Source: a virus
IMG/VR virus record: IMGVR_UViG_3300021335_001867
Coordinates: 1 to 49,837 of that record
DNA length: 49,837 nucleotides
Reading direction: 5' to 3' (one strand)
A model generated the notes under the pieces. It searched no databases. It was not told where the DNA came from and saw only the letters and a list, made by a program, of their open reading frames with translations. Of the stretch, positions 1-45,026 are shown piece by piece (the stretch's first letter is position 1; each line of letters begins with the position of its first letter). A program made the position numbers and the translations under genes.

Positions 1-375
1 AGTTTTATCTTTGTGCTGCGGAGTCCTTGTCATTGTTTCTGCATCTATCACACCCATCTCAACTAACTGATCAAAGCCTTCTTCAAACTCTTGGAATAGG
101 TCGTCTACTGTTACAACACCTCTTTCTACAATTTCCGGATTATATGTAGCTTCCCCTGATACAGGAATTAGGATATAATCATTCTTAGTTTTGCTCCAGC
201 TCTTGTAAACTTTCTGTTTCCATTGCGGATTAAAGATCTTTTTCTTTTCTCCTGCTTTCCACGGCTCTTCATATTCATCACCCCATTCATCTTCATGATC
301 ATAATCCCAGTCGCCCATTGGTTGGAAATCGCTAATAGGAGCTTCCTTAATCCTTTTAAATTCTTTGAATCTCAC
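1..375 (-). CDS. Acidic phage protein, N-terminal part (gene runs off the window)
   Basis: The frame is open from a GTG at 375 to the window edge, 125 codons with no stop. An AAGGAC ribosome binding site lies just upstream of the GTG. The visible part begins [13 protein letters not shown] and has a very acidic, tryptophan-rich stretch near residues 20-45 ([11 protein letters not shown]). There is no membrane segment or signal peptide. It reads away from the ALAS gene and has a TAAATA-type late promoter candidate 30 bases upstream, so late (virion or assembly) expression is likely. I do not recognise the family. Confidence 0.7.
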
Positions 376-400
376 AGCTTGTCCTTTTATTATTTCTTGT

Positions 401-416
401 TTACATATTTATGTAA
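401..416 (-). promoter_or_regulatory. Late-promoter-like ATAAATAT inside a 7-2-7 dyad
   Basis: The sequence TTACATA-tt-TATGTAA is a perfect dyad between two divergent genes. On the minus strand it reads ATAAATAT (412 to 405), like the T4 late consensus TATAAATA, placed for the gene starting at 375. It is also the only promoter-like signal close to the ALAS start at 425. Confidence 0.4.
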
Positions 417-424
417 ATAGCAGT

Positions 425-1618
425 ATGATAGATAAAAAGCCGTTTCATGATACAATAGAAGCATTAAAGCAACAAGGTAGATATCGTGTGTTTAACGATA
501 TTGTACGTGAACGAGGAGACTTCCCCCGTGCTATCTGGTATGGACCGTACGCTATTAAAACAGTTGTAAACTGGTGTAGCAACGACTATCTTGGCATGGG
601 GCAGAACAAAGTTGTAATAGATGCTATGCATACTGCACTTGATCAAACAGGCAGTGGTAGTGGAGGAACTCGTAACATTGGAGGCACTAGTCACTATCAT
701 GTTGCGTTAGAAAAACAATTAGCCATGCTCCATCGGAAGGAACGGGGGCTGTTGTTTACGTCCGCTTATGTCGCAAATGAATGGACGCTGATCGCCTTAA
801 CCAAAATCATACCCGACCTAGTATTCCTAAGTGATAGCAAGAATCACGCATCCCTTATCCAAGGGATCAGGCATAGTGGGGCTCCCAAACGGATTTGGCA
901 GCATAATGATATGGACGATCTGGAACGTGCATTAAAAGACTTCCCTACAGGCACGCCTTGCATCGTGTTCGAATCCGTGTATAGCATGGATGGAGATGTG
1001 TCACCAATGCACGACATTTGCGACCTTGCCGACCGCTATGGAGCCATAACTTACATAGATGAAGTACATGCTGTTGGTCTATATGGAAACACAGGTGCAG
1101 GTAAGTTAGAAGAATTAGGTTTACAAGATCGTGTTGATATTGTAAATGGTACATTAGGCAAAGCATTTGGAATGCAAGGAGGTTATATTGCTGCAGATGA
1201 AATTGTTTGTGATGCTGTGCGTTCTATTGCTAGTGGTTTCATATTTACAACTAGTCACAGTCCTGTGATATGTGCCGGAGCACTTGCCAGTATAAAGTAT
1301 GTAATGGATCATAATGATTTAAGGATAAAGCATCAAGCCCAATCACAGAAGCTCAAAAAACATTTACAGGCATTAGGATTTGAAATACATCCTGCAGCAA
1401 GTACACATATTGTACCTGTAATAGTAGGAGACGCTGTGAAATGTAAAGCAATGAGCGATGCTCTATTAAATGATCACAGCATTTATGTACAGCCTATAAA
1501 TTTCCCCACAGTAGAAGAAGGGACAGAACGTTTGCGGTTTACGCCTACACCTCTCCACACTGATAATATGATAAATGAGCTGGTAAATGCGTTAAGGACT
1601 TTGTCGTGGAAACCATAA
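425..1618 (+). CDS. hemA: 5-aminolevulinate synthase (C4 pathway)
   Basis: This PLP enzyme condenses glycine and succinyl-CoA to 5-aminolevulinate, the first committed step of heme synthesis in alphaproteobacteria. At 397 residues it is full length. Family blocks are collinear: [65 protein letters not shown], the PLP-lysine block GTLGKAFG (Lys246), SGFIFTTS, and the C-terminal VQPINFPTV and [10 protein letters not shown]. These match ALAS rather than BioF or Kbl. ATG 425 is chosen because the family begins near here; an in-frame upstream start at 365 would add an unrelated hydrophobic stretch. No clear Shine-Dalgarno is visible. The next gene starts inside its end (GTG 1606). Bases about 720-1070 are clearly GC-richer than the rest of the gene. 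Confidence 0.95.
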
Positions 1619-2885: not shown

Positions 2886-3613
2886 GTTGCCCAATCTTTA
2901 TGTGATATAGGTCCAGCATGGGCAAAGTCCCTTGCTACATCATCTAAGCCAACATGTATATCTAAAAAGTCGTAATAGTAATTTATTTTTTTTTCAGCAT
3001 CAAATACACCAAAAAAGAAACATTTATCTTTAAACATTGTTTTAATATAATTTATTGCAAATTTTGCATATTGCAAGTGAGAGTTTGTTTCAGTCCATAC
3101 CTGCAGAAAATCAAAATCTCTTCGACTTTCTCTATTTTTTGATATTTGTAAAAGTTTTTCCTGATAAGGTGATATAGCCCATCCCCATCCTAAGTTTCTA
3201 TTTTTATTATCTTCTGACAACACTGTAAAACGGTGCAGATTTGGTACTTGGAGAATAACATATTTAGGTTTTAATTTGTGAAGTATTTCTAAATTATAAA
3301 GATGATAAAAGATAGAGGTTCCAGACTGCCCTAAATTAACAACAGGACATGCTGTTAATTCTTGTAATTGATATGACCAACATTCCTTGTCATCTAATCC
3401 TATGCCTTGGGTATAACTACATCCTAATGCTAATATAGATTCATTCCATTTTATCTCTTCAAACTCGTTGCACCTATAACCTTGTGAATTAAAGGTGTAG
3501 GTTATTTTATCTTGATTATATTTTTTTATTATTTCTGTTGTATGTCCTAAAAAATTATGATATATTCCAGGAAATTTTTGTTTAGTTGTCGCCTTTGCAA
3601 GAGTTATGCTCAT
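2861..3613 (-). CDS. SGNH/GDSL-hydrolase-like protein (paralogue 1)
   Basis: This 250-residue protein has the layout of SGNH hydrolases. Block I is LGCSYTQGIGL (putative nucleophile Ser66), a glycine block VVNLGQSGTS follows, and the C-terminus carries RDFAHAGPISHKDWA (Asp229, His232, His238). SGNH enzymes de-esterify acylated sugars or lipids, but some phage members may be structural. The gene at 39827-40633 shares the N-terminal FNSQGYRC / FNSKGFRC block, the GCS-T block and the HAGP-(x2)-H block, so the two are paralogues. The ATG at 3613 overlaps the HNH gene stop (ATGA). Substrate unknown. Confidence 0.7.
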   Translation of the reverse strand: MSITLAKATTKQKFPGIYHNFLGHTTEIIKKYNQDKITYTFNSQGYRCNEFEEIKWNESILALGCSYTQGIGLDDKECWSYQLQELTACPVVNLGQSGTSIFYHLYNLEILHKLKPKYVILQVPNLHRFTVLSEDNKNRNLGWGWAISPYQEKLLQISKNRESRRDFDFLQVWTETNSHLQYAKFAINYIKTMFKDKCFFFGVFDAEKKINYYYDFLDIHVGLDDVARDFAHAGPISHKDWATQLSQAIF

Positions 3614-4116
3614 AAATATTTCTCCCAGACTGGATGCTTTATATCAAATTCTAACTGTTTACGCTTCGCAACCAATTCCCAATAGTCAGGCTTAAACGGT
3701 AATTGCTTAGGTCTCTCTACCCTGTTACCTTTACGTTCATTGCAGAAGTGACAGGCAACCACAATGTTTTCCCAATTGGTCCTACCACCTTTGCTCAGAG
3801 GAATGACATGGTCCATTGTACATTGGCTATGGGCTAGTCTTTGTTCGCAATACTGGCAGGTGTATAAATCTCTTATACATATATTAGTTTTTGAAAATCT
3901 AGGTTTGCGTTTTGTCCGTAGGCGTTCTTTCAACATTATCACAGCAGGTACACGGGTTTCCCAACTGGGGCTCCTAACCACCCAATCATCATACCATTCT
4001 AATACCGTGCATTTATCTAAGAACAAATAAGTTATAGCATCCTTCCACTGTATTGCGCTCAGTGGAAGGTAGTTAAGTGGGAGTCCGTCTGTGCTTAAAA
4101 CTAGAACGTCGGTCAT
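3610..4116 (-). CDS. HNH endonuclease
   Basis: A 168-residue HNH nuclease. The C-terminal half has the zinc-type HNH core: CQYC, TMDHVIPLSKGGRTNWENIVVACHFCNERKG, with Asp-His as catalytic centre and two CxxC pairs. The N-terminus (VLVLSTDGLPLNYLPLSAIQWKDAI) matches the common free-standing bacterial and phage HNH family. ATG 4116, one base after the stop of the upstream gene, is preferred over an in-frame TTG at 4140. Possible roles are homing or DNA processing; context does not decide. Confidence 0.85.
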   Translation of the reverse strand: MTDVLVLSTDGLPLNYLPLSAIQWKDAITYLFLDKCTVLEWYDDWVVRSPSWETRVPAVIMLKERLRTKRKPRFSKTNICIRDLYTCQYCEQRLAHSQCTMDHVIPLSKGGRTNWENIVVACHFCNERKGNRVERPKQLPFKPDYWELVAKRKQLEFDIKHPVWEKYL

Positions 4117-4117
4117 A

Positions 4118-4555
4118 TCATGTTTCGATAGGTTTCTCAAATTGTGCTGGTTTTAAATTTGTGCCACTGCCAATAATGCAAGCGGCTATACCCATAGGAT
4201 TAGATAACATCTCGTCGGGTAACTTAAAAACAATGCTGTAGGATCCTGTTTGAGGGTTCATAAACATTGCCGTTTCGCCTGTTACAACTCGTGGAGGTAA
4301 TTGACCTTTTGGATCCATAGGAACTTGCATAATGCTTTTGTTACTGTGGATAAAAGGAATTTCCTGGTAAGGTGCCAACTTTGCCATAATAGCTGGTAAA
4401 GTTCCGCAATCCATTGCCATTGGCATCTTGTGTAATTGTAACTGTGGTGGTACCACACGTTGTGGTTGCTGTGTGCTCGGCTCTTCGGCGTGTAAGGATA
4501 CTGTTGTGAGCAATATCGCTAACCCGCTGAAAAGCGATATCAGGGTTAGCTTCAT
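4118..4555 (-). CDS. Secreted protein with signal peptide
   Basis: The 145-residue protein starts MKLTLISLFSGLAILLTTVSLHAEEP, a clear Sec signal peptide with a probable cleavage after HA. The mature part is proline- and glutamine-rich at first, with two cysteines (CGTLP near residue 51 and AACIIG near 126) that could pair in the periplasm. I do not recognise the family. A TATAGGAGT ribosome binding site and an AATAAATATT late-promoter-like box lie just upstream, next to the endolysin cluster, so an envelope or lysis-related late role is plausible. Confidence 0.75.
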   Translation of the reverse strand: MKLTLISLFSGLAILLTTVSLHAEEPSTQQPQRVVPPQLQLHKMPMAMDCGTLPAIMAKLAPYQEIPFIHSNKSIMQVPMDPKGQLPPRVVTGETAMFMNPQTGSYSIVFKLPDEMLSNPMGIAACIIGSGTNLKPAQFEKPIET

Positions 4556-8672: not shown

Positions 8673-10160
8673 ATGTATAAAAACTACCAATTAAAAAATA
8701 AAAAGTTTATTGTAATAGGAACCGGTACTAGTGGTCTAGTTACTGCTGCCTCATTGTCATTTTCATATCCTAATTGTGATATAGTCGTTGTCGACAAGGA
8801 TAAACCAGAGATTATCGGTGTAGGCGAAGGCACTACTCGTAATTTCCAATCAATGATGGAGATGTGTGGTTACACAATCTCAGATTGGTTTGAGCCATTA
8901 CAGGCTACTTTTAAAATAGGCGTAGATTTCCAAAATTTTGGTATGGATGGAACAGATGTTTGGCATCCATTTACCGCAAATTACAAAGAAATGGATGATT
9001 GGGCAATGCAAGAACTTCATCCATCAACATTTAGAGATTTAGTTTTTCCTGATTATTTACCTTGGGTAAGAAACCATAAACATCCAATTTTTACAGAACA
9101 ACACGGGTATGGCTTCCATATCGATGCACATTTATTAAATAAATTCCTATTTGAAAAACTTCAAAAGAGAAAAAATGTAGAGTTTATTTTTGATAGTATA
9201 GTTAAAGTTAATTATGGGGGTGACAACGGTGATGGTGATATTATTGATTTATCTCTAGCTAGTGGTGCCCAGGTATCTGCTGATTTATATTTTGATGGTA
9301 GTGGTTTTGCAGGCGTAGCATCAAAAAATAAAGATAAAGTTGATGTATTAGGTGATTTATTTGTAGACTCTGCGGCTGTGATACAAGTACCTTTTAATGA
9401 TACGGTCATTGCACCTTCAGTTACAGTGGCGTCAGCATGTGATCATGGATGGATATGGACTATTCCAACTAGAGAAAGAATCGGTAGTGGTTTAGTTTTT
9501 AACAAGAGTTGCACAACATTAGACGAAGCTAAAGACACTTTGTATAATTTTTGGCAACAAAGGGCTAACGTATCTATCGATAAAAATTCAATAAAAATTT
9601 TACAATGGCATCCGTTTTATCTAAAAAATCCTTGGCAAGGCAACAGTGTTTCTGTGGGATTATCAAGTAGTTTTGTAGAACCGCTCGAAGCGACTTCATT
9701 ACAAAATTTGAGTCTGATGGTTGGTCGTATTGTAGGTAATGTAGAAAATTATTTTGTTGGATCTCATGATTTTATAGGAGAAATTAATCAGTTCCATTAT
9801 GAAATTGTAGATGAATCGATTGATTTTATTCGAGTACATTATGAAACAAAGAGGACCGACACTCCGTTTTGGCAGTATGTAGCTAGGAATTATAAAGTTA
9901 CTAAGAGACAAAGATATTACGAAAACCTTTGTGACGACCCTAATGTAGATGCCGACCACACCACTCCTACTGATTTTTTATTCCAATATGTAAATTGGAG
10001 TCTATGGATGTGTCAACAGAAACACAAAAATATTGTGTATAAAGGTATGTATAGAGAAGGGTATTTAGATGCTGCGAAAGCTAAAGTTGATCATATGGAT
10101 CAAGACGAATTGTTTGATACACTATCTTTAGCAAATTATTATCTTGGCAAATTCAGATGA
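8673..10160 (+). CDS. Flavin-dependent halogenase (tryptophan halogenase family)
   Basis: A 495-residue enzyme with all landmarks of FADH2-dependent halogenases: dinucleotide-binding VIGTGTSG (16-21), GVGEGTTRN, the reactive lysine in ATFKIG (Lys81, at the position of PrnA Lys79), the family motif WIWTIP (260-265) and SSFVEPLEATSLQ with Glu339 at the position of PrnA Glu346. Such enzymes use FADH2, oxygen and halide to halogenate aromatic substrates. A cyanophage member, VirX1, is known to favour iodide. The enzyme needs reduced flavin from a partner; the flavoprotein at 37114-37947 is one candidate (inference). It is followed by a coupled DUF6445-like gene. Confidence 0.93.
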   Translation: MYKNYQLKNKKFIVIGTGTSGLVTAASLSFSYPNCDIVVVDKDKPEIIGVGEGTTRNFQSMMEMCGYTISDWFEPLQATFKIGVDFQNFGMDGTDVWHPFTANYKEMDDWAMQELHPSTFRDLVFPDYLPWVRNHKHPIFTEQHGYGFHIDAHLLNKFLFEKLQKRKNVEFIFDSIVKVNYGGDNGDGDIIDLSLASGAQVSADLYFDGSGFAGVASKNKDKVDVLGDLFVDSAAVIQVPFNDTVIAPSVTVASACDHGWIWTIPTRERIGSGLVFNKSCTTLDEAKDTLYNFWQQRANVSIDKNSIKILQWHPFYLKNPWQGNSVSVGLSSSFVEPLEATSLQNLSLMVGRIVGNVENYFVGSHDFIGEINQFHYEIVDESIDFIRVHYETKRTDTPFWQYVARNYKVTKRQRYYENLCDDPNVDADHTTPTDFLFQYVNWSLWMCQQKHKNIVYKGMYREGYLDAAKAKVDHMDQDELFDTLSLANYYLGKFR

Positions 10161-10756
10161 TGCCGATAAAACAAATTCCATGTTTTTCTAAACATGAAAT
10201 ATTTGATTTAAGCCATCAATATAAGGTTTCAGCGCAATTGTTCCAAGGAAAAAATATTGTAATAGTTGATGATATCTATCTACATCCTATAAGTGTAAGA
10301 AATTATATATTAAGCGTACCTAGTTTTCCTGATGTCACTGCATATCCAGGATGGCGATCGCACTCTAAAACATTGTCTCCTTTACCACAATTTATAGAAA
10401 AAAAAATTATTAAATTATACTATCCGGATATGGAAGATAAACTTGTTATTGATCAACAATTTGTAGGTGGAATACTTACAACAAAATCAATGACTAATGA
10501 TTATTCATTTAAAACTCATGTTGACGGCGTTGGTTTAGCTGGCATAATTTATTTCAACACTGATGAAGAATGTTCTGGTGGCACTCAATTCTATCCAAGC
10601 ACCGCAGCAACCGTTGCGAGTTTACAGATACCAATGAAATTTAATAGGATGGTTCTATATCCAATGGATGTGGTACATAGTGGTTGGATTTTGGAAAATT
10701 CATTTGATAATTATTACCGGATAACTCAAAACCTTTTCTTCAACAAAAAAATATGA
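10157..10756 (+). CDS. DUF6445-like protein, probable 2OG-Fe(II) oxygenase fold
   Basis: A 199-residue protein starting in an ATGATG overlap with the halogenase stop. The C-terminal half has the double-stranded beta-helix pattern: THVDGVGLAGIIYFN (His-x-Asp), GGTQFY, then MVLYPMDVVHSGW (distal His) and YRITQNLFF (Arg). Proteins of this type (DUF6445) often sit beside tryptophan-halogenase-like genes in bacteria, which fits the context. It may act on the same substrate as the halogenase. Metal ligands are visible, but activity is not proven. Confidence 0.75.
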   Translation: MMPIKQIPCFSKHEIFDLSHQYKVSAQLFQGKNIVIVDDIYLHPISVRNYILSVPSFPDVTAYPGWRSHSKTLSPLPQFIEKKIIKLYYPDMEDKLVIDQQFVGGILTTKSMTNDYSFKTHVDGVGLAGIIYFNTDEECSGGTQFYPSTAATVASLQIPMKFNRMVLYPMDVVHSGWILENSFDNYYRITQNLFFNKKI

Positions 10757-10914
10757 ATAATGACCATTTTATAATGATGATTGTATTAGCTTTAGGCTTC
10801 GGAATGTTTGGCTATTTATTAGGAGCAGATGCAAGAGAAAAAGAAGCGATTGCAAGAGAATATGCATTGCATTGTCCAATAACTGGAGATTTTAGTTGGA
10901 AAGACGAATGTTGA
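10753..10914 (+). CDS. Tiny membrane protein of the halogenase operon, 53 aa
   Basis: ATG 10753 overlaps the previous stop (ATGA). The peptide has one membrane segment (FIMMIVLALGFGMFGYLLGA), then a charged stretch, then HCPITGDFSWKDEC with two cysteines. The coupled start indicates co-expression with the halogenase and DUF6445 protein. Its 3' end overlaps the convergent oxygenase gene by 23 bases. Confidence 0.6.
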   Translation: MNNDHFIMMIVLALGFGMFGYLLGADAREKEAIAREYALHCPITGDFSWKDEC

Positions 10915-11488
10915 GTTCATCTAATGTTCCTTTATTTACTGCACCAGTTGGTACAATATTAATTGCCAAAGTATACCGATACTTTTCAGACTGTTCGGGC
11001 ATAGTAAAATGGGTCAACCAACTGGGAAATATGATTAGAGAATTTGGTTCAGGATCAAATGTGTATACAGGAATATTAGAATCTGAATCGACACTAAACC
11101 CGGTGGTCATTGCAGTCTGCCGAGGATCTTGGAAATAAGTTGGACTTACCTTTTCTACATAATATATTGCTGATAGAAAAGAATTTGGATGTACATGTAG
11201 ATGATGAAATTTTTTTTGTGAGCTTCTATTAGCCCATGCTAAACTAATTTCTAACTTATCACATTGAAAATTAAAATTATCCTTGTAATCGTCTAGGCAA
11301 TTTTTTATCCAGTCAAATAAATTTTTAAATTTAGCATTTTTTTCTAAATGTGTCTCAAGAGATTTATCTGCTTGGGTTTGACTGTCAACATAAATTAAAT
11401 CTTGAATATCTTGCGCTATGTTAAAGCTAGTTTCATGTTGGTAGACAGTTAATACTGTAGGAAAAATATTAGTTATTTTTTTATTCAT
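10892..11488 (-). CDS. 2OG-Fe(II) oxygenase superfamily protein
   Basis: A 198-residue protein with the oxygenase signature HHLHVHPNSFLSAIYYVE (His-x-His), a DPR block, PEPNSLIIFPSWLTHFTMP (distal His) and YRYTLAINI (Arg). It resembles the putative 2OG oxygenases common in T4-like marine phages. ATG 11488 is used; an in-frame TTG just upstream is less likely. It faces the halogenase operon tail to tail. Substrate unknown, probably a protein or small molecule. Confidence 0.8.
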   Translation of the reverse strand: MNKKITNIFPTVLTVYQHETSFNIAQDIQDLIYVDSQTQADKSLETHLEKNAKFKNLFDWIKNCLDDYKDNFNFQCDKLEISLAWANRSSQKKFHHLHVHPNSFLSAIYYVEKVSPTYFQDPRQTAMTTGFSVDSDSNIPVYTFDPEPNSLIIFPSWLTHFTMPEQSEKYRYTLAINIVPTGAVNKGTLDELNIRLSN

Positions 11489-11526: not shown

Positions 11527-11554
11527 TTGACTTTTATAGCTCCTATGCTATACT
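11527..11554 (+). promoter_or_regulatory. Sigma70-like promoter, TTGACT-16-TATACT
   Basis: TTGACT (11527-11532) and TATACT (11549-11554), 16-bp spacer, 16 bases before the tRNA-like element. Same hexamers as the tRNA-Leu promoter. Confidence 0.7.
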
Positions 11555-11570
11555 TATAGATATTGAACAA

Positions 11571-11657
11571 GCGGGGCGTTCCTTCCAGCTGTCTTATAAG
11601 CAGTCAGCCAAACAGGGAGGCGGTGCTATAGAGGTTCAACTCCTCCGCCCCGTACCA
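11571..11657 (+). tRNA. tRNA-like element with non-canonical core (anticodon-like TAT)
   Basis: The ends are clearly tRNA-like: acceptor GCGGGGC pairs with GCCCCGT (one G-T), then A-CCA, and a T arm with loop TTCAACT. A hairpin GCTGT-CTTATAA-GCAGT would present TAT (Ile, ATA). However, only about ten bases separate acceptor and that hairpin, so no ordinary D arm fits, and an extra pairing CCTTCC (11581-11586) with GGGAGG is possible around it. It has its own promoter. It is either an aberrant tRNA, a processed tRNA mimic, or a folded RNA that borrows tRNA ends. Confidence 0.5.
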
Positions 11658-31967: not shown

Positions 31968-33287
31968 ATGAAAGCACTGATGTACACTGCTTTACTCGCA
32001 GTAGCTGCCTGCTCAGCAGGTAATGGTTCCGGTGATAAAATTGCTGACACGCCAATTCCTACACCGATTGTAGCGGAACACGCCAGCGAGCTGAAACTCA
32101 TTCGAGCAACTACAGCGTATTCTGATTGGAGTGTGATAAGGACCTATCCCATACACGTACACGAATTGGGCAGAGATGTACTGTTTGTGGTAGGAGATAT
32201 TGGAGGATTGAGAGATCCATTAGATCGTGCGAGCCTATTACAGTTTTGGGGTCTTGAAGGTGACGAACTGATCAACATGACTGACCGGATGAATCCCTCC
32301 CACCTCCGTGCAGAGATTCCAAGAGATGTACAGATTGCAGATTTTACTGGAGACGGACTAGACGATATATTCATTAACAATCACGGTACTGAACATACAG
32401 ATCCATTTACTGGAGAGCAGAATCAACTGTTGGTTCAAACTCTAACTGGAGGCTTTGAGAACTGGACTGATAGTTTGCCTCAGATTACAGACTTTGGTCA
32501 TGGCAGTTCATTTGGTGATTTAGACAGTGATGGTGACTTAGATATTTTTGTAAATAACCTTGGCGACGATGATCGGAATGTCAGCTACATTTTAGAAAAT
32601 AATGGAACAGGTGTGTTTACACAATCTAGTACAGTACAGTCGGATCAGTTTGTAAAATTAACTCATCCTGATTATGAATGGTTACCCGAAGCAGGAACTT
32701 TCTCACAAGTAATAGATATGGATGCGGACGGGGATGAAGACATTTTTTGTGGAAGCATAAGTGGTTCTTGGAAACCTGCTGATGGATTAGATCCTTTCAG
32801 TCTATGGTATGAGAATCGAGATGGTAAGTTTGTTGGGCGCCATACAGAACAGCTGAGATTTCCTTATACCAGTAACCATGTGTGGAAGTTTGAAAAATTT
32901 GATTTTGATCGAGACGGAGATTGGGATCTAATACAAAGTGGTCATAATAGATGGACTGGAGAGCTATATATACAGATGTATGAAAATCTCCGAGGAGGCG
33001 AATGGCAAAATGTCAGTAGCACAGTTTTTCCTAATCAAGGAGAAATACCAAGTATCGGAGTATTTACACTGCAGATTATTGATTTTGATCAAGATGGTGA
33101 CGAGGATATCGCCGTTAGGGGATCATTTGGTGTTGTGAATTTGGTAAATAATGGCGCTGTATTTTCCGTAGAACGCAGACAAATTTTTCCTAGAGGTAAA
33201 TATTTGGATTTAAATGCAGATGGTTTACTAGATGAAATATATTATAATGAAGATGATAGACACTTTTATGCTCGCATAAATGGATAA
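31968..33287 (+). CDS. Lipoprotein with FG-GAP/VCBS beta-propeller
   Basis: A 439-residue exported lipoprotein. The signal peptide ends in a lipobox (LAVAAC, Cys15). The body has six calcium-type loops DxDxDGxxD spaced about 60 residues: 125-133, 184-192, 250-258, 312-320, 372-380 and 414-422, the hallmark of FG-GAP/integrin-alpha-like propellers. The product should sit on the periplasmic or outer face of a membrane. It has its own early-type promoter. Carriage by a phage suggests surface masking or superinfection exclusion, though a host-adhesion role cannot be excluded. The next gene overlaps its end by 8 bases. Confidence 0.88.
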   Translation: MKALMYTALLAVAACSAGNGSGDKIADTPIPTPIVAEHASELKLIRATTAYSDWSVIRTYPIHVHELGRDVLFVVGDIGGLRDPLDRASLLQFWGLEGDELINMTDRMNPSHLRAEIPRDVQIADFTGDGLDDIFINNHGTEHTDPFTGEQNQLLVQTLTGGFENWTDSLPQITDFGHGSSFGDLDSDGDLDIFVNNLGDDDRNVSYILENNGTGVFTQSSTVQSDQFVKLTHPDYEWLPEAGTFSQVIDMDADGDEDIFCGSISGSWKPADGLDPFSLWYENRDGKFVGRHTEQLRFPYTSNHVWKFEKFDFDRDGDWDLIQSGHNRWTGELYIQMYENLRGGEWQNVSSTVFPNQGEIPSIGVFTLQIIDFDQDGDEDIAVRGSFGVVNLVNNGAVFSVERRQIFPRGKYLDLNADGLLDEIYYNEDDRHFYARING

Positions 33288-34283: not shown

Positions 34284-34939
34284 TAAAAGCCTCCTGAACG
34301 ACTACCGCTTGATGTTGTTGTTGCGCCTACCTGTGCTTGCACCAATCGTTTAGGTAGTCTGTTTATTTTAGTAGCAGTGCCTTCTGCATCAAGTGTAAAT
34401 TGAACAAATGTTTCTTCTTGTCCTTTTGCATCTAGAGTTTTACCATCTGAAAATATAATTTGGAACGGGTTTAATCTTAAAACTTCTATTTTTACTTCTG
34501 CAGGAATACGAGTTCCATATTGTTCAGAACCTATGCCTGGAGTAGTATAATAATGGGCATTGACTACATAGTCGCCTGGTTGCAGTGCTCTAAGGGTAAC
34601 TATTTCTCTGTTAAGATAGATCTTTTCTACCTCGCCATTTGGTAAAGTATAATAATCATTTCTTACACCTAAATCGTCTTTGTCTAGGTGTGCATGGCCT
34701 GCAACAGGGTTTATGTAGCTGACTTTGCCGTTAGGAGTTTCTACCCAAAGGTCAATATCTCCTTCGTGATCGTCCTGCCAGCTCATTACAATCATAATCT
34801 CTGCTTTGTATTCTATTTCAGATGTTTTGGCGGGATTATTAATCAGCAAGAAGCTGATTAGGAACAGCATCACAAAACCAAGTATTAAATTGAATAATAA
34901 ATCTATAAATGCAAGATTTGATACGTAACGTCTATCCAT
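34283..34939 (-). CDS. TolR/ExbD-like membrane protein with periplasmic domain
   Basis: A 218-residue protein. The N-terminal segment NLAFIDLLFNLILGFVMLFLISFLL has the single-span layout and in-membrane-edge Asp (Asp13) of ExbD/TolR/MotB-type subunits. The rest is an exported domain beginning IMIVMSWQDDHEGDIDLWVETPNGK, similar in style to DUF2135/YfaP-like beta domains, not the standard TolR fold. A Ser/Gly tail ends it. It overlaps the TolQ-like gene by 8 bases. Together they would form an ion-driven 5:2-type motor. Assignment rests on layout and operon, so moderate confidence. Confidence 0.7.
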   Translation of the reverse strand: MDRRYVSNLAFIDLLFNLILGFVMLFLISFLLINNPAKTSEIEYKAEIMIVMSWQDDHEGDIDLWVETPNGKVSYINPVAGHAHLDKDDLGVRNDYYTLPNGEVEKIYLNREIVTLRALQPGDYVVNAHYYTTPGIGSEQYGTRIPAEVKIEVLRLNPFQIIFSDGKTLDAKGQEETFVQFTLDAEGTATKINRLPKRLVQAQVGATTTSSGSRSGGF

Positions 34940-35408
34940 CTACGTGCTCATCCACTAACACCAGTTGTAACTTTAACAGCACACTCGCAATCAAGCCAAC
35001 CAGCGTAGTCCATAGAGCAGTTCCCATTCCTGTAGCCATCATACCCAGTGCTTCCTGTACACTTGAGGTATCTTCTACGTTCAAATCTATAAACACTGTG
35101 GTCAGCATGTAGATAAATCCTACCACAGTTCCTATCATTCCTAAGCTCAGCATGGTCTCACCGGCGAACCATTCTGGATTGGTGCTAAAAGTGTATCTGT
35201 CTTTATCACGGTCAAATCGGTGTAATCTGTAGCCTAGTCTCAGAGAGAATAAGAAATATAATCCTATAATAACCCAGCTAATCTTAGTAATGTCACTCTT
35301 GTACAAGCTGTCCAGGAATCCAAACGTCCAGCTGAGATACATCACTAATACACTTACACAGAATACCGTATACCATTTAAGTCTAGTTTGTACATGTTCA
35401 TTCATCAT
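34932..35408 (-). CDS. MotA/TolQ/ExbB-family proton-channel subunit
   Basis: A 158-residue protein with four hydrophobic segments. The family core is clear: TMLSLGMIGTVVGFIYMLTTVF, then an extra-membrane turn and GMMATGMGTALWTTLVGLIASVLLKLQ, matching the TM2/TM3 pore helices of TolQ/ExbB/MotA. It is shorter than host TolQ (about 230). It overlaps the polymerase gene stop (ATGATG) and the TolR-like gene. Acts in the inner membrane, using the proton or sodium gradient. Confidence 0.85.
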   Translation of the reverse strand: MMNEHVQTRLKWYTVFCVSVLVMYLSWTFGFLDSLYKSDITKISWVIIGLYFLFSLRLGYRLHRFDRDKDRYTFSTNPEWFAGETMLSLGMIGTVVGFIYMLTTVFIDLNVEDTSSVQEALGMMATGMGTALWTTLVGLIASVLLKLQLVLVDEHVDG

Positions 35409-37048
35409 TTATTTATCTCACCCCATTGTTTAAAAGTGTAACACTTGGTATCTACTGTATGTATATAGTCAGATCTGTCCTGTGTGCGGATGCGACCTTG
35501 ACCATATACGATATCATAATCTCTATATGCTACTGGTCTTTGCACAGTAACGTCTATGTATTCGCCATAGCCTGTGCCTAGTGTAAGGAATGTTACCCAG
35601 CGTCCGTTAGTACCACGGAATGCACGACCGTTAGCCACAATACCTGCAAACTCTACACGGTCAAGCCACTGCTGTCGTACACCGAGCCCGTCCGGAAATC
35701 CTTTGTGCCACCAGCCCGGTTCTGCAGGTACTTTCACCCTGTGTGCTTCACAGTTGTATACCCAGCGCCTATAACTGCCTTGGCAGTGCTTTAGACATGC
35801 TGCCCAGAACTTGCGTTTGTTATGTGCTTTCTGATATGCCAGTGCCCAAATAAGCCGGCCTAGGTTAACAGCATGCGCCCTGCACAATCCAAAGCCACTT
35901 AGTTCTTGTAATGCTGCAATAGCTTCCTGCTTGCGTGGGTGATCTCCTATCCGCTGCATAAATTCAAGTATCCTCGAATCGTTCTTCTTTGCAAACGCTC
36001 TGCGATACATGTCTGCTTCGTAGTTGTCTACGTCTATTATGTCGCTGATAATCTCAATAGCATCATCCTCAAACACTATTGTGTCCTGTACTGCTTCTCT
36101 GCTCCAATCGTGGAACATAGCAGCCTTCTGTCTACCCGATAGTGCTACTGGACGTATCAGTGCAGTAGCAAACACACAATCCTCCACGCTCTGCGGTTGT
36201 AGCGCACGGAATAGCCTACGCATCGCAGGAGACTCGCCTTGTGTAACACCCAGCACATCTCCCCTACACAACAGTTCACTGGTAGCAGGATCCGTGCGTG
36301 GATAGTCTGCAAGTGCTGTATCTGGATCTATCTCTAGCAGTTGCGACAGTCCACGATTAGCTAGGATATCTACCTTAAGGTGCTCTAGGTCTTCTACTTC
36401 ATATTTGTCCAGCAGTATTTGATTATCTGCTGATATAAGACTTTTGGGTAGCTGGCGTGTAAACATTACTACACCGCCACAGTGCTTGCTTATACAACGC
36501 TTCTTGCCCAAGAGCTTGCGTTCTATACGTTTGGCTTCCTTAGGATCCACACCCGCAGATTCATACGTAAATCCACGCTTTAAAGCTCCTGTAGCGCCCA
36601 AACGCTTTGCTGCTTCTCTACGTGCGCTCTTTTCTTTATATGTAACGTAGTTGCTTAAACGTGCAGTCTTACCAGGCCATTTTTTAAATATCCGCTGCAT
36701 AACTTCATTCTGCCTGTGATGCTCAAAGTCTATGTCAACATCAGGCAAGTCGTCACGCATTGGATTCATAAAACGTGCAACTGGTATACGCCACAGTACA
36801 GGATCGACATCTGTAATACCAAGTAGGTAACAGATGAGGCTAGAGCCTGCGCTGCCACGTGTCATGTGGGTAAGATCGTCTGTGAGATCTATTATATCAC
36901 ATATTTGGAGGAAGTAATCTGTGAAGCGTTGATTGAGGATTAGTTCGAATTCTTCTACTAGCCTTAGCTTGTATTCTTCGCCTTCGGGTATGGGTCTTTT
37001 AAAGCGACCCATGAGCCTTTCTATATTGTCTAAATCTGTGTTTGCCAT
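35405..37048 (-). CDS. DnaE-type DNA polymerase III alpha core, truncated
   Basis: A 547-residue C-family polymerase. Landmarks: TRGSAGSSLICYLLGITDVDP (DnaE GRGSAAGS block), LPDVDIDF (102-108) with catalytic Asp105 and Asp107, basic finger segment, and KVDILANRG with the third Asp (Asp227), followed by finger/thumb-like helices (GFGLCRAHAVNLGRLIWALAYQKAHNKRKFWAACL) and an OB-like end. The N-terminal PHP domain and much of the roughly 1160-residue host protein are absent. Either an active minimal polymerase or a modified factor. Another, smaller DnaE-like gene is at 45637. Sits between FNR-like and TolQ-like genes in one operon. Confidence 0.85.
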   Translation of the reverse strand: MANTDLDNIERLMGRFKRPIPEGEEYKLRLVEEFELILNQRFTDYFLQICDIIDLTDDLTHMTRGSAGSSLICYLLGITDVDPVLWRIPVARFMNPMRDDLPDVDIDFEHHRQNEVMQRIFKKWPGKTARLSNYVTYKEKSARREAAKRLGATGALKRGFTYESAGVDPKEAKRIERKLLGKKRCISKHCGGVVMFTRQLPKSLISADNQILLDKYEVEDLEHLKVDILANRGLSQLLEIDPDTALADYPRTDPATSELLCRGDVLGVTQGESPAMRRLFRALQPQSVEDCVFATALIRPVALSGRQKAAMFHDWSREAVQDTIVFEDDAIEIISDIIDVDNYEADMYRRAFAKKNDSRILEFMQRIGDHPRKQEAIAALQELSGFGLCRAHAVNLGRLIWALAYQKAHNKRKFWAACLKHCQGSYRRWVYNCEAHRVKVPAEPGWWHKGFPDGLGVRQQWLDRVEFAGIVANGRAFRGTNGRWVTFLTLGTGYGEYIDVTVQRPVAYRDYDIVYGQGRIRTQDRSDYIHTVDTKCYTFKQWGEINK

Positions 37049-37113: not shown

Positions 37114-37947
37114 TTAGCCTACAAAGGCTTTCTCTACTACATAATCTCCAGGAGTTCCTGTATTACCTTCTGCAAATCCATTTGCGTCAAGTATACGTTT
37201 TAAGTCTTCATTAAACTCCATACTACCACAAAGCATTACACGATCTTGTTGAGGATCCATTTCTCCTAGTAATACCTTATCATTGATAAGTTCTGTAATA
37301 CGTTTCTGATATCCAATATATAATTCATCTCTAGTTACAATAGGAAATAGATTTAAATCGTATCCTGTTAGGTCTGCCCTATATGCTTTAAGCTCGTCTT
37401 GTTCTCTAACACTCCATGCTACATTAACCTCTGCGAAAACATTGAAAATATCCTTCTGTCTTACCAAACTCATAAAAGGTGCAATGCCTGTTCCTGTTGC
37501 AAGTAACCAAAGCCTGCGACCTGGCTTTAGGTTTTCTAATAACAGGGTGCCTGTTGCCTTAGCGCCTACTTCAACTGTATCACCAGGCTGGATATTTTTT
37601 AGCCTTGAAGTAAGTGCTCCATCAGGCACCTTGATCGAATAAAATTCTAAATAGTTATCTCCTGGAGAACTGGTAATTGAATATGCCCTGCGTACCTTAT
37701 CACCAAGTCCAATCATTACAAACTCACCTGCTTTAAATGTGTAGTCTACTGGTTTGTCTGTAACAAATCTAAACAGTGTATCAGTATAGTGCTGTACTTC
37801 TCTAACCATTACAACATGTTTATCGTTTTTTGGTTTTTCAGCAACTTGTTCTGCTTGCAGTACTAACAGTTCTGCTTGCCATTCTGCTTCTGATAAAGCA
37901 TGCCATCCTCTACAAAAATCTGGACTTCGTCCGCATCCACACGCCAT
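37114..37947 (-). CDS. Ferredoxin-NADP reductase-like flavoprotein with Cys-rich N-terminus
   Basis: A 277-residue protein. Residues 1-24 are a compact cysteine motif (CGCGRSPDFCRGWHALSEAEW) like a small metal- or cluster-binding module seen as a free peptide in other phages. From about 40 it is an FNR: FAD block RRAYSIT (86-92), NADP block ATGTGIAPF (150-158), CGSMEF near the C-terminus and a short VEKAFVG end. It moves electrons between NADPH and ferredoxin or flavodoxin. It could supply reductant for ribonucleotide reduction, oxygenases or the halogenase (inference). It lies directly after the helicase gene. Confidence 0.9.
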   Translation of the reverse strand: MACGCGRSPDFCRGWHALSEAEWQAELLVLQAEQVAEKPKNDKHVVMVREVQHYTDTLFRFVTDKPVDYTFKAGEFVMIGLGDKVRRAYSITSSPGDNYLEFYSIKVPDGALTSRLKNIQPGDTVEVGAKATGTLLLENLKPGRRLWLLATGTGIAPFMSLVRQKDIFNVFAEVNVAWSVREQDELKAYRADLTGYDLNLFPIVTRDELYIGYQKRITELINDKVLLGEMDPQQDRVMLCGSMEFNEDLKRILDANGFAEGNTGTPGDYVVEKAFVG

Positions 37948-39830: not shown

Positions 39831-40633
39831 TGATTTTGATTTAATTTAGTAATATCAGTACATACAATATTTGCAAAATCTTGGTGTCTTCTTGGTCCTG
39901 CATGCATACAATCTCTAGCTCGATCATATTTGTATCTTTTTGGGTTTTCACCTCCATATGCTTGGAAATAGAATGAGTCGTAGTGTAAAAATTCTGCGTT
40001 GTTTTGTATTGCAATTTGCTGCAAAGCCAATAAATTTTTTTCTCGTTGTAAAAAAATATTACTTTCGTTTCGTGAAAAAAATTCCCAAGCAGCCTGAAAG
40101 TCTCTTTTATCTAAATCCGAATGAGAGTTTATTTGACAGTACCCATATCCGTGCCCAGGTTTAGTACCTTTAAATTCCATTCTGCATGGATCAGGTTCTA
40201 CATATACAATATATCGAGGCTGTATTATTGGAATCCAATAATAACCTACTCTAAAGCATGTCTCATTAGCACCGCCCCCTATTCCTAGATTAAAATTTTT
40301 TAAGTGTAAACGGCTAGAAACCACAGAAGCAAATGTCATATGTTCTGGCAAACCTATACCAAGTGTATGGCTACATCCCAACCATACTATAGAATTTGGT
40401 TCTTTTTCTAATTCAGGGCATCTAAATCCTTTACTGTTAAATTTATATTCAATTGAGTTTTCGCTCCAATTGTTTTTTGCGATGAATTTTCTATTTTTAT
40501 AGTGTATTCTATTCGCTCTAAAATTTTCTTCATCATCTGTCGGCACCCATTTTACAGTTTTGTTAAAATAGCAATCGTATCCTAAAAAATCTAATTCATT
40601 TGGTTGTTCAGTAGTGTAAATGTTATCTTCCAT
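39827..40633 (-). CDS. SGNH/GDSL-hydrolase-like protein (paralogue 2)
   Basis: ATG 40633 is used: ACAGGA stands upstream and it overlaps the carbamoyltransferase end by 11 bases. The 268-residue protein has the GCSHTLGIGL block (Ser88), a GIGGGANETC block, and DCMHAGPRRHQDFA at the C-terminus (Asp241, His244, His250). It shares these and the FNSKGFRC segment with the protein at 2861-3613. Likely acts on acyl or sugar esters. The pairing with a carbamoyltransferase suggests glycan or metabolite tailoring (inference). Confidence 0.72.
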   Translation of the reverse strand: MEDNIYTTEQPNELDFLGYDCYFNKTVKWVPTDDEENFRANRIHYKNRKFIAKNNWSENSIEYKFNSKGFRCPELEKEPNSIVWLGCSHTLGIGLPEHMTFASVVSSRLHLKNFNLGIGGGANETCFRVGYYWIPIIQPRYIVYVEPDPCRMEFKGTKPGHGYGYCQINSHSDLDKRDFQAAWEFFSRNESNIFLQREKNLLALQQIAIQNNAEFLHYDSFYFQAYGGENPKRYKYDRARDCMHAGPRRHQDFANIVCTDITKLNQNH

Positions 40634-42164
40634 TATTTTTTCCTGTAAAAACTTTAACCTCATAGGTTTTTTCAAATTCTTTTGCATCTGTTAATGTATT
40701 TACTATGGGTTTGCCTTTTATATTGAGACTTGTGTTCAACAGCATAGGACAGCCAGTTAGTTCGTACCATTTTTCCAACAGCGCTCTAAAACCAGGGTGA
40801 TCCTGCTTTGTAACTGTTTGAACTCTGCTGGTTCCGTCTGCGTGGACAATTGCAGGGTATCGTTCAGGATCCTTACAATGTGCGGTGTACTGCATATAAC
40901 GTCCGAAGGGCGGCTCAAATAAACTGGATGCGTGTTCTGCAAGGACTGCAGGTGCGAAGGGACGGAACTTCTGTCTACGTTTAATGGCATTGACTTTATC
41001 TTTAATATCCATACGCTGAGGGTCAGCAAGAAGGCTGCGAGCGCCAAGGCTACGAGGACCGAACTCGGCTCTTCCTGACGCAACCCCTGCAATACCCGTT
41101 TGCATAAGTTCTTTAACGATTTCATCTACTGGATACTCTCCTCCTATATCGTAACCTAGATAAGGTCCAGGCCATTCTATGTGTGTGCCTCTATGTGCAA
41201 GCACTGCACCTATGCAACTGCCTGCATCGCCTGGATTAGGCATTATCCATATGTTATCTGCGCCATTCCAGTGTTCAACTATCTTGCTGTTAGCACTGCA
41301 ATTCAAAGCACAGCCGCCCATAAACACTAGGTTACTGCTAGCGTATGTCCTAGCTACAGCCTTACTTATCCTAGTTAATATGTGCTCATATGCCCATTGT
41401 GTTCCTGCTGCTATGTCATATGCCCATTGCGTAAATTCTTGCTTATCATCTACGATATTAAATGCAATCTTAGTAGGCTCCCACCACATGCATCCTCTAT
41501 GTAGATTGTGCTTTAGCTGGAAGTTAGGAAGACGATTAAAGATATTTAAATGGTTAGGAAACTGTTCCCAAAAATCGTTTAATATAGTTTCGCCATACTT
41601 ACCAGCATCACCATATGCTGCCATTCCCATAAGTATGTATTCTTCTTCATTTGGCTTCAATCCAATACGTTGTGTCATTGCACTGTACCAAATGCCAATA
41701 CTGTTAGGATAGTTCCAAGTTCGTTTACAAGTAAGTTTATCATATTCACCTTCCCATACGCTTAGTGTATTCCACTCTCCTATTGCATCTATGACCAGAA
41801 CTGTTGCATGTTCGAATCCGCTAGTATAGTATCCAGCTGCCGCATGTGAATGATGATGACCTACCGTTGATATAGGCGCTGTTAATCCAAAAGATTTTAA
41901 ATATTTTTTTATACGATTCTTGTTTAATAAATCTGTTTGTCCAGCATACCATTGTCTTGTAGTTTTTAGAAAAGGTTTTTCGTACCATATAATCCTGTTA
42001 GGTTCTCCCCATTGAAATGCATAATCGATAATATCTTGATTTAAATGAGCATCATTTTTAATACCGCTAAATCTTTCTGTATGGCTAGCAAATTCAATTT
42101 TGTCATTAATATGAACTGATATAGCTGCGTCATGACTGTTTGCGCTTATTCCCCAAGTAATCAT
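40623..42164 (-). CDS. Carbamoyltransferase, NodU/CmcH family
   Basis: A 513-residue enzyme with the family landmarks: ITWGISANSHDAAISV at the start, GHHHSHAAAGYYTSGF (metal histidines), LVIDAIGEW, GGCALNCSANSKI (the glycine/asparagine carbamoyl-adenylate site), EFGPRSLGARSLLADP and the C-terminal RPFAPAVL block. It transfers carbamoyl from carbamoyl phosphate via carbamoyl-AMP to a hydroxyl group, as in Nod factors or cephamycins. Related genes are common in T4-like marine phages; the acceptor is unknown. ATG 42164 is preferred over a TTG at 42176. Confidence 0.92.
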   Translation of the reverse strand: MITWGISANSHDAAISVHINDKIEFASHTERFSGIKNDAHLNQDIIDYAFQWGEPNRIIWYEKPFLKTTRQWYAGQTDLLNKNRIKKYLKSFGLTAPISTVGHHHSHAAAGYYTSGFEHATVLVIDAIGEWNTLSVWEGEYDKLTCKRTWNYPNSIGIWYSAMTQRIGLKPNEEEYILMGMAAYGDAGKYGETILNDFWEQFPNHLNIFNRLPNFQLKHNLHRGCMWWEPTKIAFNIVDDKQEFTQWAYDIAAGTQWAYEHILTRISKAVARTYASSNLVFMGGCALNCSANSKIVEHWNGADNIWIMPNPGDAGSCIGAVLAHRGTHIEWPGPYLGYDIGGEYPVDEIVKELMQTGIAGVASGRAEFGPRSLGARSLLADPQRMDIKDKVNAIKRRQKFRPFAPAVLAEHASSLFEPPFGRYMQYTAHCKDPERYPAIVHADGTSRVQTVTKQDHPGFRALLEKWYELTGCPMLLNTSLNIKGKPIVNTLTDAKEFEKTYEVKVFTGKNNGR

Positions 42165-42187
42165 AAAATTTTCCAATAAATATTTGT

Positions 42188-42715
42188 ATGCAACTAAAAT
42201 ATCTTATCTCTAAAACTTATTTAAAAGAAATTGAATACCAGCATAATACATCCGAATGGGGCATGGCAGGGTTTAACCATGTACCTTATATAATAGATTT
42301 AGCAAACAGTATTAAAGCAAAAAATATTCTAGATTATGGTAGCGGTTGTGGTAAAACTGCTAATGAACTAAGAAAAAATAATTTTACTGTATTAGAATAT
42401 GAACCTGGTATTGAATCTAAGAGAAATAATTTAAATTTAATTAATGTTAACAATTTTAAAACAGATTTAATTATTTGCACAGATGTGTTAGAACATATAG
42501 AAAGAAAAAAATTAATTAATGTTTTAAATCATTTAAAATCTATAAATTGTATGTATTACTATGTAACAATAGGAACAGGTCCTGCATATAGAATTTTATC
42601 AAATGGCGCCAATGCTCATTTGATACAAGAAGACGAGCATTGGTGGTACAATACCTTAAGTAAAATTTTTAAGATACACACTGGCAATAAATGGACATAT
42701 GTATTAACAAAATAA
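42188..42715 (+). CDS. SAM-dependent methyltransferase
   Basis: A 175-residue class I methyltransferase: NILDYGSGCGKTANELRK (SAM site), YEPG (acidic end of strand 2), DLIICTDVLEHIE (motif with DVLEH). The only plus-strand gene in a long minus block, divergent from the carbamoyltransferase with an AATAAATATTT box in the 23-base gap that could serve both directions. Very AT-rich. Target may be a small molecule or sugar. No clear ribosome binding site. Confidence 0.8.
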   Translation: MQLKYLISKTYLKEIEYQHNTSEWGMAGFNHVPYIIDLANSIKAKNILDYGSGCGKTANELRKNNFTVLEYEPGIESKRNNLNLINVNNFKTDLIICTDVLEHIERKKLINVLNHLKSINCMYYYVTIGTGPAYRILSNGANAHLIQEDEHWWYNTLSKIFKIHTGNKWTYVLTK

Positions 42716-44651: not shown

Positions 44652-45026
44652 ATGTTAAGAAAAGAAATAGAAGAAAATTATCCTTTCATATCATTAATAC
44701 AATACGGCGGTAAAGAATATGTAGGAATTGTTGTTAATCAAGATCAACATATTACAACTATATTAGATTATTCGATATTGAAAAATTTAGCAGACAAAAA
44801 ATATTTCCTTGAACTAGGAGAAACTTGGTGGATGGAAAGTAATAGGATGATACCGATTACGATATTTTTACGTTCAGATATTGAATGTTTGCGTTATTGT
44901 CTTAAAAATATGAATAGTAAAGATGTAAATATTGTGTTAGGGCCAACAGTTAATTTAGGTAACCTACATTTGAAAAGAATCAAGCGTAAAAGTATTCAGA
45001 TGGTTCGTAAGCCAAAAAAATCATAA
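44652..45026 (+). CDS. Conserved T4-like phage protein, unknown function
   Basis: A 124-residue plus-strand gene. Text such as PFISLIQYGGKEYVGIVVNQDQHITTILDY and RSDIECLRYCLKNMNSKDVNIVLGP resembles short hypothetical proteins of marine T4-like phages. Basic C-terminus. It converges with the sulfotransferase gene (6-base overlap). Confidence 0.75.
   Translation: MLRKEIEENYPFISLIQYGGKEYVGIVVNQDQHITTILDYSILKNLADKKYFLELGETWWMESNRMIPITIFLRSDIECLRYCLKNMNSKDVNIVLGPTVNLGNLHLKRIKRKSIQMVRKPKKS

What the first reader, a model, noticed from the sequence alone, without database searches (positions are those of the whole stretch)
8673..11488. Halogenase, DUF6445-like protein, micro-membrane protein and 2OG oxygenase module
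The halogenase keeps the reactive Lys81, Glu339 and WIWTIP motif, so it is likely active. It is translationally coupled to a DUF6445-like protein with oxygenase-type ligands and to a 53-residue membrane peptide with two cysteines. A second 2OG oxygenase faces them. This is more than a lone auxiliary gene: it resembles a small tailoring pathway. The marine cyanophage halogenase VirX1 is known to iodinate a range of substrates. The tiny membrane peptide is new to me in this context.
Basis: partly seen in the sequence, partly recalled or inferred. Interest (0 to 1): 0.65.

Follow-up and report, generated by a model that had tools for sequence, protein, structure and literature searches.

The report
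Phage halogenase coupled to DUF6445 oxygenase
An aquatic phage carries a probably active halogen-attaching enzyme whose gene overlaps that of an iron/2-oxoglutarate hydroxylase-type enzyme of unknown function; similar gene pairs occur in other marine phages, and related pairs in bacteria, but the tiny membrane protein behind them is an unrelated passenger found in other phages.

Summary
Window 8673-10160 encodes a variant-A flavin-dependent halogenase (PF04820, 224 bits). Lys81 and Glu339 are invariant in 54 aligned relatives, and its predicted fold matches tryptophan halogenases (Z about 40). It overlaps by ATGA a DUF6445-family protein whose metal ligands are intact (H121xD123, H174; R188 nearly invariant) and whose predicted fold is prolyl/lysyl hydroxylase-like (Z about 15). 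A second ATGA joins a 53-aa membrane protein. A PF13759 2OG oxygenase converges from the other strand.

The module reading is partly right. Halogenase-to-DUF6445 overlaps recur in other viral contigs (L064 has the identical 4-nt overlap plus a 2OG oxygenase), often in islands with carbamoyltransferases. In Sphingomonadales 10 of 11 high-scoring DUF6445 genes lie within 10 kb of a halogenase (chance about 3% each), although the phage protein is in a separate, long-branch viral clade.

The peptide is not part of it: its CPxTGxxxWKxEC family occurs in unrelated phages without a halogenase nearby, and was absent from all other halogenase loci examined. VirX1 is a distant relative (22%), so iodination cannot be inferred.

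Most likely this is a two-enzyme halogenation/hydroxylation tailoring pair of unknown substrate.

The parts
8673..10160 (+). flavin-dependent halogenase (PF04820, variant A type), 495 aa, K81 and E339 intact; AGGA ribosome-binding-like sequence upstream
   Evidence: PF04820 E 3.7e-66; phrog_2928 E 2e-90
10157..10160 (+). ATGA stop/start overlap, halogenase to DUF6445-like gene
   Evidence: sequence; the same 4-nt overlap in L064 (4914-4917)
10157..10756 (+). DUF6445-family protein (PF20043), Fe(II)/2OG-oxygenase fold of the prolyl/lysyl-hydroxylase type; ligands H121, D123, H174, with R188
   Evidence: (PF20043 36.7 bits, cutoff 24)
10753..10914 (+). 53-aa single-span membrane protein with C-terminal CPxTGxxxWKxEC motif; ATGA-coupled but judged a passenger, not part of the module
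10892..11488 (-). 2OG-Fe(II) oxygenase (PF13759 / phrog_81), H98xH100...H160, R171; convergent with the + strand operon
   Evidence: (68.3 bits, cutoff 27)
37114..37947 (-). bacterial FPR-type ferredoxin-NADP(H) reductase; a possible but unproven phage-borne source of reduced flavin
   Evidence: (2bgi E 1.7e-53)
40623..42176 (-). NodU/Nol-type carbamoyltransferase, the family that accompanies DUF6445-like genes in 50 of 80 other viral loci, here about 30 kb away

Best explanation
The locus is a two-gene tailoring pair in a phage genome that carries several other modification enzymes. SHOWN by sequence or model: a variant-A flavin-dependent halogenase with both catalytic residues, joined by an ATGA overlap to a DUF6445-family protein with an intact HxD...H...R site and a prolyl/lysyl-hydroxylase-like predicted fold; a second 2OG oxygenase converges on them. 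INFERRED: the halogenase uses FADH2 (from a host flavin reductase, or possibly the phage's own FPR-type reductase 27 kb away), O2 and halide to form HOX, passed to Lys81, which halogenates an electron-rich aromatic group held near Glu339; the DUF6445 enzyme hydroxylates the same or a neighbouring group using Fe(II), O2 and 2OG, and is made together with the halogenase so that both act on one substrate. The substrate is unknown; a protein or peptide side chain, or a surface- or glycan-linked group, is favoured over free tryptophan. The membrane peptide is an unrelated passenger gene.
For: Families: PF04820 224 bits, PF20043 36.7 bits, PF13759 68 bits. K81 and E339 invariant in 54. Halogenase model mean pLDDT 82, Z 38-40 to SttH, Xcc4156, AbeH, PrnA and BrvH. 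DUF6445 model pLDDT 89, Z 14-15 to OGFOD1, mimivirus lysyl hydroxylase, LH3, PHD2 and P. putida P4H, which mostly act on protein residues. Halogenase/DUF6445 overlaps in L064, L072, L103, L097, L056, all in the halogenase clade of P0001 (100/99). Island co-occurrence in S-SSM7 and L018. DUF6445 within about 7 kb in 35 of 80 halogenase loci, halogenase within about 7 kb in 39 of 80 DUF6445 loci. In Sphingomonadales 10 of 11 high-scoring PF20043 genes lie within 10 kb of a halogenase, four within 180 bp; in Gammaproteobacteria 2 of 3; in Moorena the gap is 15 bp.
Against: No activity or substrate is known for any phage halogenase/DUF6445 pair. P0002 scores higher against the bacterial DUF6445 paralogues that are NOT near halogenases (53.6 bits) than against those that are (30.9); in the tree it falls in a separate viral clade on a long branch, so the bacterial linkage supports the idea only indirectly. 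Within phages direct overlap occurs in about three lineages only; most co-occurrences are at island scale. No flavin reductase adjoins the pair. The third oxygenase is on the other strand and need not belong.
Confidence: 0.5

Rival explanations
1. A lone auxiliary halogenase in a variable, oxygenase-rich region: DUF6445, the peptide and the 2OG oxygenase are independent cargo that happens to be packed next to it.
For: Marine phages are rich in 2OG oxygenases (PMC3037559); the four-gene order is not conserved; P0002 is closer to bacterial paralogues not linked to halogenases; the peptide is clearly a passenger.
Against: The same halogenase-to-DUF6445 overlap recurs in about three other viral lineages, and independent linkage in bacteria is far above chance.
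Confidence: 0.3
2. The pair modifies virion proteins (for example tail-fibre residues): the 2OG enzyme hydroxylates and the halogenase halogenates residues of an adhesin. (A special case of the best explanation.)
For: DUF6445 fold is closest to protein prolyl/lysyl hydroxylases; glycine/cysteine-rich fibre-like proteins lie in the same fetched locus as the DUF6445 gene in 33 of 80 viral loci and next to the island in L113 and L120.
Against: No such fibre gene is present in this window; marine phage islands of this kind also hold sugar genes, so the neighbourhood is not specific.
Confidence: 0.2
3. The pair decorates a surface saccharide or lipid (carbamoylation, hydroxylation, halogenation) to change the host envelope during infection.
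For: NodU-type carbamoyltransferases in 50 of 80 DUF6445 viral loci; cytidylyltransferase, PfkB kinase, HAD phosphatase and cupin genes in the L120, L064 and S-SSM7 islands; the window has a carbamoyltransferase, a methyltransferase and a sulfotransferase elsewhere.
Against: Flavin-dependent halogenases act on electron-rich aromatics (established enzymology), not on sugars; in this window the sugar-type genes are 30 kb away.
Confidence: 0.15
4. A VirX1-like broad-range iodinating halogenase providing a small halogenated metabolite (antibiotic or signal).
For: Same superfamily and fold; VirX1 (6qgm) Z 33.6; VirX1 prefers iodide (PMC8407142).
Against: 22% identity, different clade; closer structures are SttH, Xcc4156 and BrvH; no other natural-product genes next to it.
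Confidence: 0.1

Closest known systems
Synechococcus phage S-SSM7 / S-SSM6a halogenase (phrog_2928, T4-like GC 212) and its island
   Same: Closest halogenase in annotated phages (31%, 89% covered); the island also has 2OG oxygenases (the gene just upstream, labelled 'denV', looks like the phrog_274 family that also matches 2OG oxygenases) and two DUF6445-like genes labelled 'minor coat protein'.
   Different: There halogenase and DUF6445 genes are several kb apart in a carbamoyltransferase/heptose cluster; here they overlap and stand in a short run between tRNA genes and a convergent oxygenase.
Pelagibacter phage HTVC008M gp078-gp079
   Same: A 2OG oxygenase (best-scoring relative of P0004 among the fetched loci) overlapping a halogenase by 17 nt.
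   Different: The oxygenase is upstream on the same strand; no DUF6445 gene; halogenase about 24-25% identical.
Viral contig L064 (IMGVR_UViG_3300047562_003298)
   Same: Halogenase then DUF6445 with the identical 4-nt overlap, followed by a PF13759-type oxygenase.
   Different: Tandem halogenases, carbamoyltransferase upstream, all genes on one strand, no peptide.
VirX1 (cyanophage Syn10, PDB 6qgm)
   Same: Phage-borne variant-A halogenase, same fold.
   Different: 22% identity, outside the clade, different gene neighbours.
Bacterial PF20043/PF04820 neighbourhoods (Sphingomonadales, e.g. L246; Moorena L197)
   Same: Halogenase next to DUF6445, in L246 overlapping by 1 nt in the same order.
   Different: DUF6445 there belongs to another clade; in L246 a TonB-dependent receptor is nearby.

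Membership tests
Variant-A flavin-dependent halogenase (PF04820) | family profile match over the whole length | tested here: met
   224.3 bits against cutoff 21, residues 12-450
Variant-A flavin-dependent halogenase (PF04820) | FAD-binding GxGxxG, catalytic Lys, catalytic Glu, WxWxIP motif | tested here: met
   G16, G18, G21, K81, W260-P265, E339; K81 and E339 invariant in 54
Variant-A flavin-dependent halogenase (PF04820) | fold | tested here: met
   model pLDDT 82, Z 35-40 to solved tryptophan halogenases
Variant-A flavin-dependent halogenase (PF04820) | partner flavin reductase | tested here: inconclusive
   none adjacent; an FPR-type ferredoxin-NADP reductase at 37114-37947 could serve, and host reductases are possible
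Variant-A flavin-dependent halogenase (PF04820) | halogenating activity and halide preference | not testable with these tools
   needs an assay
VirX1-type viral halogenase | close sequence relationship to VirX1 | tested here: not met
   22% identity; P0001 in a 34-row clade (100/100) without VirX1; the placing of long branches is uncertain
VirX1-type viral halogenase | preference for iodide | not testable with these tools
   needs an assay
DUF6445 (PF20043) | profile score above the curated cut-off | tested here: met
   36.7 bits against cutoff 24, in two stretches
DUF6445 (PF20043) | belongs to the bacterial subfamily linked to halogenases | tested here: not met
   30.9 bits against that profile, 53.6 against the unlinked paralogues; separate viral clade
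Fe(II)/2OG oxygenase superfamily (P4H/PLOD type), for P0002 | HxD...H metal site and 2OG-binding Arg | tested here: met
   H121, D123, H174 invariant, R188 at least 90%
Fe(II)/2OG oxygenase superfamily (P4H/PLOD type), for P0002 | double-stranded beta-helix fold | tested here: met
   predicted model; Z 15.2 OGFOD1, 14.9 mimivirus lysyl hydroxylase, 14.4 PHD2
2OG-FeII_Oxy_5 (PF13759), for P0004 | profile match and conserved HxH...H, Arg | tested here: met
   68.3 bits against cutoff 27; H98, H100, H160 invariant, R171 nearly
   homologues only in L012, L024, L025/L028 and L027, no halogenase there; no homologue (best E 0.35) in the other halogenase loci fetched

The most novel reading that the evidence does not exclude
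DUF6445 proteins are dedicated partners of flavin-dependent halogenases in both bacteria and marine phages: a two-enzyme halogenase/hydroxylase system, so far undescribed, that modifies a shared macromolecular substrate such as a peptide, surface protein or phage fibre. This would give a function to an uncharacterised domain and a substrate class to phage halogenases.
Probability: 0.25. Interest if true: 0.65.

Novelty: new variant of a known kind. Interest (0 to 1): 0.42.

Why it matters
Phage halogenases are common (20 of 153 cyanophages surveyed in PMC10452541) but their natural substrates are unknown. A recurrent, translationally coupled 2OG enzyme gives a concrete handle: co-express the two and look for a product that is both halogenated and hydroxylated. 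The link between PF20043 and PF04820 in bacterial genomes, for which no paper was found in the searched library (DUF6445 occurs in none), offers a first functional hypothesis for DUF6445.

Tried and rejected
Peptide as module member: rejected. VirX1 orthology: rejected. Nucleotide-level relatives of the first 25 kb of the window in phage records: none. Close relatives of P0003 and P0004 in viral contigs by peptide patterns: none. My first tail-motif scan was one base wrong and its zero is void; the corrected pattern found five stretches. PHROG labels 'minor coat protein' (phrog_1644) and 'DNA endonuclease V' (phrog_274) for 2OG-type proteins judged annotation errors, since the predicted P0002 fold is an oxygenase. 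Direct transfer of the bacterial DUF6445-halogenase linkage to P0002: weakened; a first run with wrong-strand reading frames was discarded. FPR as a conserved halogenase partner: no homologue in the other viral loci. Cyanobacterial order of Moorena: DUF6445 in 1 of 80 genomes only, so no second test there. An extra tRNA at about 11565-11656: looks tRNA-like but not called by ARAGORN or Rfam. Promoter and terminator scan: no more sites than chance.

Full report
OBSERVATION. The window is a 49,837-bp IMG/VR virus record. Both forward junctions are ATGA stop/start overlaps, the usual sign of translational coupling. The convergent gene overlaps the peptide's end by 23 nt. tRNA-Arg, -Leu and -Met genes lie just upstream.

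HALOGENASE. PF04820 matches over nearly the whole protein (224 bits), as does phrog_2928. K81, E339 and FAD-binding glycines are invariant in alignments of 9, 41 and 54 sequences. An AlphaFold2 model from 41 sequences (pLDDT 82, pTM 0.87) aligns over about 458 residues to solved tryptophan or indole halogenases, best SttH Z 40.1, Xcc4156 39.6, AbeH 39.6, BrvH 38.1; VirX1 33.6. In the maximum-likelihood tree P0001 is a long branch inside a well-supported clade of marine viral halogenases that includes S-SSM7 and every viral halogenase that was found directly overlapping a DUF6445 gene downstream of it; VirX1 lies elsewhere. So an intact enzyme of a known family is well supported; the halide and substrate are not known.

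DUF6445-LIKE PROTEIN. PF20043 36.7 bits, with a weak hit to the 2OG-FeII_Oxy_3 family. Across 55 sequences H121, D123 and H174 are invariant and R188 nearly so, the HxD...H...R signature of Fe(II)/2OG oxygenases. A model from 51 sequences (pLDDT 89, pTM 0.86) matches OGFOD1 (Z 15.2), mimivirus lysyl hydroxylase (14.9), LH3 (14.5), PHD2 (14.4) and P. putida prolyl hydroxylase (14.3). By fold it works like a side-chain hydroxylase; the substrate is not shown.

PEPTIDE. tblastn found one related frame in a spring phage (MW202675, E 3e-4) that shares the tail AIARxYAxxCPxTGxxxWKxEC. A scan of IMG/VR with that tail as a DNA pattern gave five stretches, four with a matching small membrane protein (L024, L025, L027, L028; L025 and L028 identical; alignment: both cysteines and CPxTGxxxWKxEC invariant). 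None has a halogenase, DUF6445 or PF13759 gene in the DNA held around it (some of these loci are short), and no other halogenase locus has the peptide. It is a small phage membrane-protein family that happens to be coupled here.

GENE NEIGHBOURHOODS IN VIRUSES. Scans with alignments fetched 80 loci anchored on DUF6445-like genes and 80 on halogenases (both lists were truncated, so counts describe the best matches only, and some contigs are in both). A DUF6445-like gene lies in the fetched locus (about 7 kb each side) in 35 of 80 halogenase loci, a PF13759-type oxygenase in 41 of 80 (13 directly overlapping or abutting); conversely a halogenase lies near DUF6445 in 39 of 80. Direct halogenase-to-DUF6445 overlaps occur in L064, L072, L103/L112, L097/L113 and L056/L120, that is about three lineages; L064 has the identical 4-nt overlap and then a PF13759-type oxygenase. 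Given island-scale clustering, direct overlap inside viruses is only modestly above expectation; I did not put a probability on it. The islands often also contain NodU-type carbamoyltransferases (50 of 80 DUF6445 loci) and glycine/cysteine-rich fibre-like proteins (33 of 80). The named-phage counterparts are S-SSM7 and HTVC008M. This phage has its own carbamoyltransferase at 40623-42176.

BACTERIA. In 60 Sphingomonadales genomes PF20043 splits into a high-scoring group (190-271 bits, 11 genes) and a low-scoring group (below 60 bits); the split was made after seeing the scores. Ten of the 11 high-scoring genes lie within 10 kb of a PF04820 gene, four within 180 bp, in one case halogenase-DUF6445 with 1-nt overlap (L246). 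On average 2.8% of these genomes (at most 6.4%) lies within 10 kb of a halogenase, so the binomial chance is about 1e-11 or less (the genes are related, so this overstates independence). The low-scoring genes in the same genomes are unlinked (0 of 4). In Gammaproteobacteria 2 of 3 higher-scoring genes are linked (233 bp and 4.7 kb), 0 of 3 low-scoring. Moorena has halogenase-DUF6445 with a 15-bp gap. Caveat: P0002 resembles the unlinked paralogues more (53.6 against 30.9 bits) and sits in a separate viral clade. The association therefore seems to have arisen, or persisted, in more than one DUF6445 clade, but it does not prove that P0002 serves a halogenase.

MECHANISM. From established enzymology of the family: reduced FAD, O2 and halide give HOX, relayed to Lys81 and delivered to an aromatic carbon activated by Glu339. 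P0002 would hydroxylate with Fe(II), O2 and 2OG. Coupled translation suggests matched amounts and a shared substrate (inference). Because OGFOD1, lysyl hydroxylases and P. putida P4H act on proteins, and because viral islands adjoin fibre or envelope-sugar genes, a macromolecular substrate is favoured over free tryptophan (inference, weak). The FPR-type reductase in this phage might reduce flavin, but is not conserved in the other loci.

LITERATURE. Cyanophage halogenases and 2OG oxygenases are known (PMC2984593, PMC3037559, PMC10452541), and VirX1 is described as the first viral halogenase characterised (PMC8407142). No held paper mentions DUF6445, and none found describes a halogenase/DUF6445 pair. 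The library lacks most subscription papers.

VERDICT. A genuine, probably active halogenase/oxygenase pair; a new arrangement within a known kind of phage gene cargo. The peptide and the VirX1 analogy fall away. The DUF6445-halogenase association is the part worth following.

Noticed in passing
window 365-1618 (+), likely start at 425: 5-aminolevulinate synthase (Shemin pathway; TIGR01821 560 bits, cutoff 339), followed by a 288-aa ORF without Pfam match and a DUF454 protein (2463-2885). Phage AlaS is known (PMC11480375); suggests an alphaproteobacterial host.
   Followed up: partly
window 37114-37947 (-): Ferredoxin-NADP(H) reductase of the Rhodobacter FPR type between DnaB helicase and DNA polymerase genes.
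   Followed up: partly
window 40623-42715 and 45021-45644: NodU-type carbamoyltransferase (-), a divergent methyltransferase (+) and a sulfotransferase (-): more modification enzymes in the same phage.
   Followed up: partly
window 37957-39384 (-): DnaB-like helicase is closest (51.5%) to Pseudomonas jumbo phages of the PA5oct type (about 285 kb), so the 49.8-kb record may be a fragment of a much larger phage.
   Followed up: no
window 35405-37048 and 45637-46200 (-): DNA polymerase matches are split over separate ORFs about 9 kb apart; an HNH endonuclease sits at 3610-4140.
   Followed up: no
window 34932-35408 (-): Weak MotA/ExbB/ZorA-like membrane protein (PF01618 28 bits; NCBIfam ZorA 27 bits, far below cut-off).
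   Followed up: no
window 31968-33287 (+): FG-GAP repeat protein (PF13517 75 bits), no significant PHROG match.
   Followed up: no
window 11527-11656 (+): TTGACT-16-TATACT promoter-like site followed by a tRNA-like stretch (7-bp acceptor-like stem, T-arm-like element, ACCA end) not called by ARAGORN or Rfam.
   Followed up: partly
L064, L116, L138, L141, L168 and others: Many viral contigs carry two tandem, overlapping halogenases.
   Followed up: no
L029-L108 (80 DUF6445 viral loci): DUF6445-like genes travel with NodU-type carbamoyltransferases (50 of 80) and glycine/cysteine-rich fibre-like proteins (33 of 80); unexplained.
   Followed up: partly
L220-L239 (Sphingomonadales): Short DUF6445 paralogues in tandem arrays of three (for example G060:C2, G051:C1, G057:C6, G034:C1).
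   Followed up: no
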